A DNA stretch of 64,000 bases from Echinarachnius parma (taxonomy: Eukaryota > Echinodermata > Echinoidea > Clypeasteroida > Echinarachniidae), in the NCBI GenBank assembly GCA_037951105.1, contig JBAMJV010008938.1, forward strand, positions 1 through 64,000. The letters run 5' to 3'. Below, piece by piece: positions 1,467 through 49,140 of the stretch (positions are counted from its first letter, which is position 1; every line of letters begins with the position of its first letter). The notes under the pieces are model-generated. The model worked only from the letters and a program-made list of their open reading frames with translations, was not told where the DNA came from and did no database searches. Position numbers and translations under genes: made by a program.

Positions 1467-4418
1467 CTACACAAAGGGGGGACAAAAACACATAACAAGA
1501 GGTCAGAGTAATAAGCTACTAAGTAGTGTGAATAGAAATCACTTGAGATTGACATTTTCTTATTATTAGTTAACATTCTTATTGAGCAGATTAAAAATGC
1601 TGGAGATGTGTTCTTACATGGTGGAAGAAGGTAGACTTGATAAGGACAAGATGGCCTAGGAGCTTGTAGTTTGAGAAGAATCCAAAGTTCCATTTGATAA
1701 AAGTTAACATTCTTATACTGAACAGATTAAAATGCTGAAAATGTTTTCTTACATGATGGAAAAAACATTTACCATATGTAATCGAGATCGCCCAGGAGTG
1801 TGAACAAACATTGCTTAAGCTAATTCCAGAAGAATGAGAACAATTCATAATGATATGGTTAAATCAATAGGTTAACATTTAACAGGGTCCTTACTGACAA
1901 GCTTATATGCTTTTAAAGGGCCCTAACCATTATTGACTTTATTTATATCATTTTGTAATGCATGTATCATTGCTGTATATATTTGTGTGTTTTTAATGGT
2001 TGAATAAATTCAAATCAAATCAAATCAAACATTTAGCGTGTTCTTACATGATGGAAGAACGTAGACCTGATGTAATCGAGATGCCCCAGGAGTGTGAACA
2101 GACATCGCTTGAGCTTGTAGTTCCAGACCTTGATCTTGTAGTCGTCTCCCTCCGGACACAAACAGCGGCTGCTGCTGGTGGAAGCTGATGCCTCTAACTG
2201 GACCTGCATGTACAAATAATAAACAGAAGGAATAGGTGAGTCTTCTTCTTTTGTGTGCATCATCTACTCATCAAATGTTAAGCCAGGATTTGGCACAGCT
2301 CACAGCTTTTCTGTTTGCGGCCTTACTTACAGCCGAATTCTAGGACAGATTTAGTTATTGTCGAACAGAATACAGTAAGGAAACCGGCAATCTTTTCAAA
2401 ATCAATGCAAATTATAACATTTTCAGAGTGTGAACAGACATTGCTTCAACTTGTCATTCCAGAATTGGCTAGGTTCCATGGTCTGTTACTGACAAGGACT
2501 TTACGTAATTTATACCAAACAAATTATTGCCTGTTTCTTGTTACTTATTGCTTGCTTCTTACCGTCATGTTCATCAAACTTTTCTAGGAGGGTGCACATG
2601 CGGTAGCCCTATACATGTAGCTGGATGGTGCAGTTGTGCCATTGAAAGCTCCAATATAAGCTTTAAAAATATAATAGTTAATGAAGGCTTAGTTCCATGT
2701 TTTAATTGTACTACAATGCATTTTCCGTGTTACTGGCAAAGAGAAATCCTGAAATGTTAACTTGTTCTTACCATCGTGTTCATCAAACTTTTCTAGGAGG
2801 GTGCACATGCGGTAGTCCCATAGCTGGATGGTGCCGTTGTGCAGACTGGCCAGGATCCATGGTCGGTTCGGATGGAAGCACAGACCTGATGTCAGAAAGA
2901 ACAAGAAATATATTTAAATTAGTGTTATTAGACATTAGTGAAAAGGATTTAACCATAGATCTGTTACCAACCGTCTTGGTGTAAAACTGCTAATTGTTTT
3001 TAGGTTTTAGCTAAATGCTGTTTAAGTTCACATCAAAGAGGAAATATTCCTAGTATGTTCTGATTGTAGAAATGCAAGCTCAAACTGTAATAACAATAAT
3101 GATTAATCAATTTGCTTCTTTTTATATTATGTCCACTTTAAACAAGTTCTAAGGAAATTTCCTCCAAATTCCAATAACAAAACGCTAGAAATAAACCTTT
3201 TTCCAAAGACCCAGGTGGGTCACTCAGTGTCGGGTAACCAGCAAACTAAATAAAGAATTATGTGGCCTGAAACAAGAATTCAGTAGAGCTCTACAAACAA
3301 AGACAAACGTTAAACAGTCTGTTGGATTGCACAGTCTGAGCTGGGGCAAGACAAATTTGGCAGTAGAAATTTGGTGACCGAATGGCCAATGCTAATTTTG
3401 ATGATCCCAGCATGTTGGCCAAGTATTGAAATTTTACAAAAAAATTAGAACATAATAAATTTTGCCAACGTCAAATTAAAGAGCAAACATTCCTTATAAA
3501 TACTATACAGCCTCAAAAAAAGACATATTTCAGGAGAAATTCTCACTTTTTGTGTTTCTTTTCATGTTATAATATCATATTTTTTTGGCCTTACACATGA
3601 ACAAAATAAATGAGGGTGAATCGGCAAATGAAATAGATCAAATTCTTTTGGATTGCGCAGTCATCGTAAAGAGATTTGATAAATAACCAACATGTGCATG
3701 CAAAGACAATCATAAATGCTCATTCAACTCAACTTCAAGCTGCCACAAGTTTGACATGGAATGTCAAGAAGTGTGTGTTGAGTTAAAAATCAATGGCGGA
3801 TTGGTGACAATGGTGAGCCAAGTTTAAAATACACAACTAAGTTTTTTTGGATAGCAATTGTTATTTAAATAACACGGTTTCTTACACAATTGGGTCATTA
3901 TCAGATAAAATATGACTTCAAAAAACAAAGCCTTTTTTATATTTGAATCCTCAATACATGATGGAGAATAATTTGTTTGTTTATTTTAATGTTTTTTTCA
4001 TTGAACTTTGTCATTATCAACGATAGGATTAGAATAGATTGAATTTTAATTGTGGCACGTCAAGTCGTCTGCATCGCCATCGATCATTCACAGACTGACG
4101 CGACAGACTGCAGACTTGGCCGTTTTGTCAGACAAACACACCTCAAGTTGAACACAAAATTTGTTAAATTCAGCCCAGGCTTTCACTCCTCAGTCACTGA
4201 CACTGCCACTGACTTACTCGACGTCTCAGACTCTCTTCTCAATCTATCTTCTCATTTATTGTTATAATTTCATTCTCACTCAATTTGGTAAATTGTAATT
4301 TGTATTTGTAAATGTAACGAGTTGGGAAATTAAATTCTAATTTCAGTTTCAAAGTACCACAGAAAACTATATTCTCACCTTTTACCCTTGCAGACTTCGT
4401 CTCAAATTTAGTCAGCAT
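1390..4418 (-). CDS. COPA: Coatomer subunit alpha (alpha-COP), 5' four exons, partial gene
   Basis: Alpha-COP is the largest subunit of the COPI coat. Its N-terminal WD40 propeller binds dilysine cargo tails during Golgi-to-ER transport. Four exons with GT-AG borders read in order on the minus strand. They give an opening [14 protein letters not shown], then [20 protein letters not shown], then [20 protein letters not shown], then [20 protein letters not shown]. These are the near-invariant first three WD repeats of animal alpha-COP (whole protein about 1,220 residues). Exon phases agree at every junction. The gene continues beyond the left edge, so only about 128 residues are present. One anomaly is an extra base inside exon 3 at 2147 that shifts the frame between SGG and DDYK; splice sites and flanking codons are otherwise intact, so a sequencing or assembly error is more likely than a pseudogene. 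Identification is firm; functionality of this copy is not proven. Confidence 0.92.
1611..1676 (-). pseudogene. Decayed copy of COPA exon 3 3' end (relic A)
   Basis: The plus-strand string TTCTTACATG-TGGAAGAA-GTAGAC-TGAT matches the donor end of exon 3 (2041-2075) including its GTAAGA splice donor, then diverges (GGACAAGATGGCCTAGGAGC against GAGATGCCCCAGGAGTG). It is too short and mutated to be used. Confidence 0.6.
1745..1832 (-). pseudogene. Decayed copy of COPA exon 3 3' half (relic B)
   Basis: It matches exon 3 over the donor (TTCTTACATGATGGAA), TGTAATCGAGAT and CCCAGGAGTGTGAACA, then ACATTGCTTAAGCT against ACATCGCTTGAGCT. Several substitutions and gaps spoil the reading frame. Confidence 0.7.
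2048..2203 (-). CDS. COPA: COPA exon 3, with one-base insertion
   Basis: 156 bases, acceptor ATGCAG| and donor CATCAT|GTAAGA. It codes for [18 protein letters not shown] and, in the shifted frame, [20 protein letters not shown] up to FFHH. The expected length is 155. An extra A (minus strand; T at 2147 on plus) between the GGG and GAC codons breaks the frame. The residues on both sides are near-identical to the family, and exon 4 continues in the expected phase if that base is ignored. Confidence 0.88.
2425..2492 (-). pseudogene. Decayed copy of COPA exon 3 middle part (relic C)
   Basis: GAGTGTGAACAGACATTGCT, then TCAACTTGTCATTCCAGA, parallels GAGTGTGAACAGACATCGCT and GAGCTTGTAGTTCCAGA in exon 3. 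It runs on into TTCCATGGTCTGTTAC, which recalls the start of exon 2 (ATCCATGGTCGGTTCG). Confidence 0.6.
2556..2640 (-). pseudogene. Decayed copy of COPA exon 2 (relic D)
   Basis: Nearly identical to the donor end of exon 2: CTTACCGTCATGTTCATCAA, TTTTCTAGGAGGGTGCACAT and GCTGGATGGTGCAGTTGTGC are all present. An insertion (ATACATGTA) and the loss of the acceptor half break it. It lies about 200 bases from the true exon. Confidence 0.8.
2772..2885 (-). CDS. COPA: COPA exon 2
   Basis: A 114-base exon, acceptor CATCAG| and donor GATG|GTAAG. It codes for the first WD repeat, [18 protein letters not shown] through [16 protein letters not shown]. Phase 1 at both ends matches exons 1 and 3. Confidence 0.92.
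2886..4378. other. COPA intron 1
   Basis: AT-rich intron between COPA exons 1 and 2. No exon, known repeat family or long ORF was recognised. Confidence 0.6.
4379..4418 (-). CDS. COPA: COPA exon 1 coding part
   Basis: Codes for [13 protein letters not shown] plus one base of the next codon. The donor is G|GTGAGA. The ATG is in a good context (GCCATGC). This peptide is the conserved alpha-COP N-terminus, which fixes the start. Confidence 0.9.
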
Positions 4419-4700
4419 GGCTGTCGTTAATTACTCTTAAAACCAGACAATATTGTTCTCCTTTTCTTCAATGATTCTCAGCAAGATGTGTACAACAACA
4501 CGGGAACTCTACTACAGAGTGTACGAATTCGGTAACGCCTAACTTTTTACATGCATGCAAAATGCGAGCCACGTCACTCTCCATACGTGGTCAATTGTAG
4601 CCTTTTCGCGGTCGTTTAATTGAACGCACATCTTTCGTATACACGCAACGAAATTTCGCTGTTACATCAAACGACTGATTTCTGGTCTACGTTAGAAATT
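4419..4700 (-). promoter_or_regulatory. COPA 5' UTR and promoter region with UPRE-like site
   Basis: A CpG-containing stretch directly upstream of the COPA start. On the minus strand it carries TGACGTGG at 4569-4576, about 150 bases from the ATG. This is the core of the XBP1/ATF6 unfolded-protein-response element. COPI genes are known UPR targets in animals. The transcription start itself is not visible. Confidence 0.45.
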
Positions 4701-4914
4701 AGGGGCGTCCTCTTTCCCCGGCCCCAGGCCTTCGTTTCAACCTTTTTTCATCATTCTCACAAAACTAAAAATTAGATAAATAAGATAACGATAATTTGTT
4801 TTTATTCGCTGAGAATAGGCTGTAGGGAAAGTGAACAGATATAAAAAAGCGGTAGCTTTTGAAAAATAAATTAGGACATCAAATGTGACAGGATGACGCC
4901 GTTGGGGTCGTGCC

Positions 4915-48880: not shown

Positions 48881-49021
48881 CTGATTTTAATAAACAATAC
48901 AAAATTAGCAGGATTCATTTCAGAAAAGTGTGAAAGCTCAAAGGAAATGTCGATTGAATTTGACAAAGTTAATATTCAGAGCTTCACAAGATTGACATGC
49001 AGGACAAGTAGAAATTGACGT

Positions 49022-49140
49022 TGGGCAAGTCAGATGACACTAGTCTGATCAAAGGAAGCAGTATCTCATCACGCCACGGCAGATCTATGCTTGTGGGAAC
49101 TAAACTGGAAAAGGCTGCCTAATTCAGGCTTCGGACATAC
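49022..49140 (+). pseudogene. Decayed copy of PON last exon
   Basis: AGATGACACTAGTCTGATCA, AAGGAAGCAGTATCTCATCA, CGGCAGATCTATGCTTGT and GAAAAGGCTGCCTAATTC follow the intact exon closely. The TAC-TGC of YCEL is replaced by a stop (TAA). Just before it lies a scrap of M7 (GACGTTGGGCAAGTCAG). Confidence 0.88.

What the first reader, a model, noticed from the sequence alone, without database searches (positions are those of the whole stretch)
1611..49140. Every host gene in the window is accompanied by decayed partial copies of its own exons
COPA has four relics (two of exon 3 donor ends, one of its middle, one of exon 2), the I-kappa-B-like gene two (exon 3 end, exon 4 with a stop) and the PON gene two (penultimate exon with stop, last exon with stop). 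The relics lie within about 0.1-0.6 kb of the intact exons and keep splice-site sequence. Three unrelated genes showing this suggests a general local process, such as replication slippage, template switching or MITE-driven duplication, not selection on one gene.
Basis: seen in the sequence. Interest (0 to 1): 0.72.

Follow-up and report, generated by a model that had tools for sequence, protein, structure and literature searches.

The report
Decayed tandem copies of exon pieces
Next to several exons of three unrelated animal genes lie short, broken copies of those same exons, best explained as leftovers of ordinary small tandem DNA duplications that also hit non-coding DNA nearby.

Summary
They belong to a COPA gene, an I-kappa-B-zeta-like ankyrin gene and the 3' end of a paraoxonase gene. 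All eight are partial, same-strand copies 66-386 bp from the parent exon; six carry an in-frame stop. Six of the 11 exons tested have one, not every exon. Pooled differences are 58/419 at codon positions 1+2, 52/211 at position 3 and 68/288 in introns and flanks: the pattern of a neutrally decaying copy beside a constrained parent. By hand count about 14 non-coding tandem duplications of similar unit length lie in the same window, so the process is general local duplication. I found no sign of MITE action. Exons are hit about 3-7 times as often as non-coding controls; slower parent decay explains about 1.4-fold in one simulation. The remainder is post hoc, from six exons, and was not tested genome-wide, because the genome search did not complete.

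The parts
1390..1466 (-). COPA exon 4, no relic
   Evidence: translation [25 protein letters not shown]; coatomer alpha match; best local direct score 86
1608..1662 (-). relic A of COPA exon 3 donor end; similarity to relic B runs on to 1560; no stop
   Evidence: 80% over 55 columns; z 8.1; to relic B 86% or 84/105; frame open
1743..1830 (-). relic B of COPA exon 3 donor end; two in-frame stops
   Evidence: 81%; z 23.4
1882..2035 (.). insertion of 154 bp (one flanking repeat counted) with (TCAAA)n end and 8-bp repeat TAAATGTT at both edges; looks like a LINE 3' tail; separates exon 3 from relic B
   Evidence: repeat positions; the element type is inferred, no second copy was compared
2048..2203 (-). 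COPA exon 3, parent of relics A, B and part of D; carries a one-base frameshift
2426..2499 (-). relic D: 5' part of COPA exon 2 (2464-2499) fused to the middle of exon 3 (2426-2463)
   Evidence: 33/38 to exon 3, z 11.1; exon 2 part score 85, reached by 1 of 5000 shuffles
2551..2639 (-). relic C of COPA exon 2 with donor; one in-frame stop
   Evidence: 77/82 aligned positions identical, 6-base and 1-base insertions; z 29.5
2772..2885 (-). COPA exon 2, parent of relic C and part of D
4380..4415 (-). COPA exon 1 ([13 protein letters not shown]), no relic; ends approximate
   Evidence: read from the sequence; part of the coatomer alpha match; best local direct score 63
26388..26598 (+). I-kappa-B-like exon 3 (ankyrin)
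26690..26823 (+). relic of I-kappa-B exon 3 end with donor and intron; offset 193; in-frame stop
   Evidence: 101/134, gapless; z 24.7; stop
27047..27225 (+). relic of I-kappa-B exon 4 start with acceptor and 58 aligned intron bases; offset 186, 179 aligned, nearly perfect tandem; in-frame stop
   Evidence: 155/179 gapless; z 44.4; stop
27291..27439 (+). I-kappa-B-like exon 4
46385..46481 (+). relic of PON penultimate exon start with acceptor; in-frame stop; core 46437-46473
   Evidence: 73/97; z 9.5; stop
46569..46688 (+). PON penultimate exon
   Evidence: PON1 residues 262 on
48713..48880 (+). PON last exon with stop
   Evidence: match runs to PON1 residue 355, the chain end
49031..49121 (+). 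relic of PON last exon; early in-frame stop; no acceptor
   Evidence: 86%; z 26.5; stop

Best explanation
The relics are remnants of short direct tandem duplications of genomic DNA (offsets about 134-263 bp; relic D lies 336 bp from its exon 3 parent). Replication slippage or unequal exchange most likely copied a segment that happened to span part of an exon, usually with its splice site, into the neighbouring intron or 3' flank. Being partial, the copy made no usable exon and decayed neutrally, while the parent exon stayed under constraint, which keeps the relic recognisable for longer. Shown: direct orientation, adjacency, intron or flank carried along in 7 of 8, neutral-like decay, and the same class of duplications in non-coding DNA. 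Inferred: the molecular event. At least one step in COPA was complex: relic D joins exon 2 to exon 3, both of which read TCTG at the join.
For: Six of 11 exons score 147-480 for a direct local copy and none of 11 exceeds 93 for an inverted one. I-kappa-B exon 4: offset 186, 179 gapless aligned, 7 bp between copies. Pooled differences over eight pairs: codon position 1 29/208, position 2 29/211, position 3 52/211, intron and flank 68/288; positions 1+2 against 3 P 0.0012, against intron P 0.00097, position 3 against intron P 0.83. About 14 non-coding direct tandem pairs by hand count, median offset 150 bp against 190 bp for the exon relics, offsets entered by hand. Taking out the 154-bp insertion, exon 3 and relics B and A stand about 143 and 134 bp apart, by my arithmetic.
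Against: It does not explain why exons are hit more: 5 or 6 of 11 exons against a random mean of 0.8-1.5 of 11, or 6 of 11 against 100 of 798, 156 of 1154 or 241 of 1314 non-coding 120-bp tiles by masking. With the simulated 1.44-fold survivorship factor binomial P runs from 0.0006 to 0.027, with a factor of 2 from 0.0036 to 0.095. Relic D needs a deletion or template switch besides a simple tandem duplication. Breakpoint microhomology was not worked out. Relics A and B share history, so the pooled counts are not fully independent. The gapless runs of the I-kappa-B exon 3 and PON last-exon pairs stop before the full tandem unit, so those are tandem by inference.
Confidence: 0.82

Rival explanations
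1. Exon-biased duplication: exons or splice junctions in this lineage are true hot spots for short tandem duplication or template switching, beyond chance and detection bias. It would still act through local tandem copying.
For: Exonic bases are covered 31-34% by local direct copies against 4.8-9.3% of non-coding bases; randomised P 0.0008 to 0.006 in seven of eight settings and 0 of 4000 in the eighth. The exon 2 / exon 3 chimera. GC content shows no trend in 440 non-coding tiles (7.4-8.0% in four GC classes).
Against: Six exons in three genes, noticed because they looked striking. With survivorship factors P rises to at most 0.027 (1.44-fold) or 0.095 (2-fold). The controls depend on masks and lists that I set by hand.
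Confidence: 0.12
2. Relics are working or recently working alternative (mutually exclusive or poison) exons.
For: 6 of 8 keep one splice site; the I-kappa-B exon 4 relic keeps its acceptor and has a stop; relics A and D have no stop in the copied part.
Against: 0 of 8 keep both splice sites and all are partial; 6 of 8 have an in-frame stop; differences are equal at codon positions 1 and 2, and position 3 matches intron.
Confidence: 0.03
3. MITE- or transposon-driven capture of exon pieces.
For: The window has many inverted-repeat pairs (16); a piece of a dispersed repeat abuts the PON last-exon relic (18534-18569 matches 49000-49035); an insertion with flanking repeat lies in COPA intron 3.
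Against: None of those 16 pairs flanks a relic; pairs more than 700 bp apart or in low-complexity DNA were not counted there. Copies stay beside the parent in the same orientation. The COPA insertion lies between parent and relic, so it looks later.
Confidence: 0.03
4. Assembly artefact: unmerged haplotypes or a collapsed paralogue.
For: COPA exon 3 has a one-base frameshift, so the sequence may hold errors. No read data were seen.
Against: Exonic divergence of 7-28%, stops, partial units and an insertion between copies are not haplotype-like.
Confidence: 0.02

Closest known systems
Degenerate or intronic exon duplications as catalogued by Exonize (PMC12343006; read: part 1 of 3, found passages and the Results section text, whose table values were not shown)
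   Same: Exon matches inside introns of the same gene, described as potentially unannotated or degenerate (pseudo) exons; more genes have partial, inter-boundary and intronic events than full ones
   Different: That tool works on annotated genomes with tblastx and coverage cut-offs; in the parts I saw there is no rate for partial dead copies beside exons that I could compare with this window
Tandem exon duplication (PMC9013439; passages only, which cite a 2002 study for about 10% of animal genes)
   Same: Same-gene copies of an exon in adjacent DNA, some unannotated
   Different: Here the copies are partial and broken, not candidate alternative exons
Short tandem duplication by replication slippage (recalled; PMC2374710 seen in a search listing with the start of its abstract only)
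   Same: Direct adjacent copies in coding and non-coding DNA
   Different: Offsets here are 65-669 bp (13 of 14 non-coding ones at most 275), longer than what I recall for slippage indels

Membership tests
Partial tandem exon duplication, degenerate | copy lies beside the parent in the same orientation | tested here: met
   8 of 8 direct, 66-386 bp from the parent exon
Partial tandem exon duplication, degenerate | DNA-level copy carrying intron, flank or splice-site sequence | tested here: met
   intron or flank aligned in 7 of 8, splice site kept in 6 of 8
Partial tandem exon duplication, degenerate | copy no longer under coding constraint | tested here: met
   pooled 58/419, 52/211, 68/288; stops in 6 of 8
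Mutually exclusive or alternative exon | complete exon with both splice sites and open frame | tested here: not met
   0 of 8 keep both sites
Mutually exclusive or alternative exon | found in transcripts | not testable with these tools
   no transcript data
Processed (mRNA-derived) copy | introns removed at splice junctions | tested here: not met
   7 of 8 carry intron or flank; the eighth, the exon 2 / exon 3 chimera, joins inside both exons, not at the splice junction
MITE-mediated duplication | inverted terminal repeats at the borders of the copy | tested here: not met
   0 of 16 inverted pairs within 700 bp, outside low-complexity DNA, flank a relic

The most novel reading that the evidence does not exclude
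In this animal lineage exons, or their splice junctions, are real hot spots of short tandem duplication or template switching, so that introns carry a fossil record of dead exon pieces at several times the background rate.
Probability: 0.12. Interest if true: 0.6.

Novelty: new member of a known kind. Interest (0 to 1): 0.27.

Why it matters
Dead exon copies with a constrained parent beside them act as local neutral clocks: change at codon positions 1 and 2 reads the relic's decay alone, and position 3 reads both copies. If the exon excess held genome-wide it would point to a transcription- or splicing-linked duplication process and to a supply of raw material for new alternative exons. On present evidence it is ordinary local duplication, made more visible because exons are conserved.

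Tried and rejected
Genome-wide test: the genome search on the window's own genome was sent eight times and never answered. No comparison with related species was made and the species is not identified. PON upstream exons: Pfam and PDB searches of three + frames of 33400-43200 gave nothing PON-like (one search listed 60 of 70 weak hits, nearly all in a histidine-rich stretch), so the PON gene may be longer than these tools see or only a 3' fragment. Other host genes: I scanned 18 chosen ORFs besides the LINE (9, 9, two of these from the I-kappa-B gene); none gave a Pfam match above its cut-off, and three weak matches (E 0.04-0.1) were ignored.

Limits of the controls. The inverted-copy rate in the fully masked set is circular, since that mask used inverted hits, and is not used. 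My 14 non-coding events were picked by hand from the 42 direct pairs: I left out the exon and relic pairs, the coding repeat in the large I-kappa-B exon, repeated rows and most pairs in likely transposon clusters. Two that I kept (13976/14162, 18699/18772) lie inside stretches that masked as such clusters, and two (49957/50187, 50120/50395) belong to one array. The Poisson values (expected 0.65-2.58, P 0.00006 to 0.016) rest on that list, and I give them less weight than the randomisation. The masks were set by hand too. The 1.44-fold factor depends on assumed rates (12% indels per substitution, positions 1 and 2 at 5% of neutral, 100 pairs per point, 10 exons). Exon ends used in the scripts differ by a few bases from the final ones. 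The chimera test was made after seeing the join. GC content was tried as the reason for the exon excess and showed no trend.

Literature: a search for two or more of the phrases exon relics, exon remnants, decayed exon, exon duplication and dead exon found 0 papers; some searches were read as listings, apart from the papers named. PMC9741552 was searched for pseudo, relic, remnant, intron and lost; only 'lost' occurred, twice, and not about relics.
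Full report
What is there. The window looks like animal DNA, with three host genes that I could name. On the minus strand at 1390-4415 are exons 1-4 of coatomer subunit alpha: solved coatomer alpha chains match residues 1-128 with E 1e-102 to 1e-87, while the top row, a WD-40 repeat protein at 1.2e-109, matches in nine stretches. On the plus strand at about 22.5-35.5 kb is an ankyrin gene; of the 60 solved chains shown, NF-kappa-B inhibitor zeta has the longest matched stretch (query 3-253, E 1.5e-26), though long ankyrin arrays have lower E-values. 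At 46569-48880 are the last two exons of a paraoxonase (PON1 residues 262-355, E 3.5e-13); Pfam gave no family for this piece. A LINE reverse transcriptase lies at 43220-46219 on the minus strand.

Observation. Each of the eight relics aligns to its stated parent and beats all 400 dinucleotide shuffles, by 8 to 44 standard deviations. A self-comparison not aimed at them shows seven in the window-wide rows that I printed (list cut) and all eight in the local one. They are partial, same-strand, and 66-386 bp from the parent exon; six of eight have an in-frame stop. Relics are found at 6 of 11 exons tested.

Anatomy. I-kappa-B exon 4 is the clearest case: copies at 27047-27225 and 27233-27411, gapless, offset 186, a plain tandem duplication running from the intron into the exon. 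By the alignments, relic C starts in exon 2 about 3 bases after the exon 2 part of D ends.

Decay. Differences over the eight pairs are 29/208 at codon position 1, 29/211 at position 2, 52/211 at position 3 and 68/288 in intron and flank. Positions 1+2 differ from position 3 (P 0.0012) and from intron (P 0.00097); position 3 and intron do not differ (P 0.83). This follows if relics take changes everywhere and parents mostly at silent sites. It varies by pair: in COPA C the exon differs at 5/71 and the intron at 15/58, but in I-kappa-B exon 3 the exon differs more (27/102) than the intron (18/78), and in the two COPA exon 3 donor relics the 10 intron bases differ less than the exon. Relics A and B share history, so the pairs are not fully independent.

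Is it special to exons? Local direct copies are common in the window: 42 direct and 16 inverted pairs within 700 bp outside low-complexity DNA, of which I count by hand about 14 non-coding tandem events with offsets of 65-669 bp, median 150. Placing 11 exon-sized segments at random in non-coding DNA hits 0.8-1.5 on average against 5 or 6 observed, by threshold and masking; P is 0.0008-0.006 in seven of eight settings and 0 of 4000 in the eighth. A looser control, 120-bp tiles at about the score of the weakest of the six exons hit, gives 241 of 1314, 156 of 1154 or 100 of 798 non-coding tiles by masking, thus a 3- to 4.4-fold excess. A simulation shows exon-derived pairs staying detectable about 1.44 times as long. 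With that factor binomial P is 0.0006-0.027; with a factor of 2 it is 0.0036-0.095. The excess is suggestive but comes from six exons chosen after the fact.

Mechanism. Same orientation in 8 of 8, adjacency, intron or flank carried along in 7 of 8 and offsets like the non-coding ones favour tandem duplication by slippage or unequal exchange. No inverted pair found borders a relic, against MITE action. The chimera D needs a deletion inside an earlier copy or a template switch. The molecular event itself is inferred, not shown.

Known or new. Intronic, partial and degenerate exon copies are a known category (Exonize, PMC12343006; part 1 of 3, passages and the Results text read), and tandemly duplicated exons are reported for about 10% of animal genes (PMC9013439, passages). 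This is a further example. The claim of interest, the exon excess, remains untested beyond this window.

Noticed in passing
2048-2203 (COPA exon 3): A one-base insertion at GGAGGGAGACGAC shifts the frame between VSGG and DDYKIK; sequencing error, null allele or pseudogene.
   Followed up: partly
1882-2035: Insertion with (TCAAA)n end and flanking repeat TAAATGTT just after the COPA exon 3 donor, like a LINE 3' tail.
   Followed up: partly
46745-47767: About 1 kb array of 36-bp units in the PON intron; related pieces at 39725-39861 and 54986-55124.
   Followed up: no
23700-23863 and 24405-24488: In-frame coding tandem repeats (36 bp x 4.6, 27 bp x 3.1) in the large I-kappa-B exon, perhaps the same kind of duplication kept in frame.
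   Followed up: no
6814-6922, 18282-18860, 20200-21300, 24763-24860, 49000-49035: A dispersed repeat family rich in CTTGCCC / GGGCAAG motifs, one piece directly beside the PON last-exon relic.
   Followed up: partly
33400-43200: No upstream PON exons recognised on the + strand; the PON gene may be a 3' fragment.
   Followed up: partly
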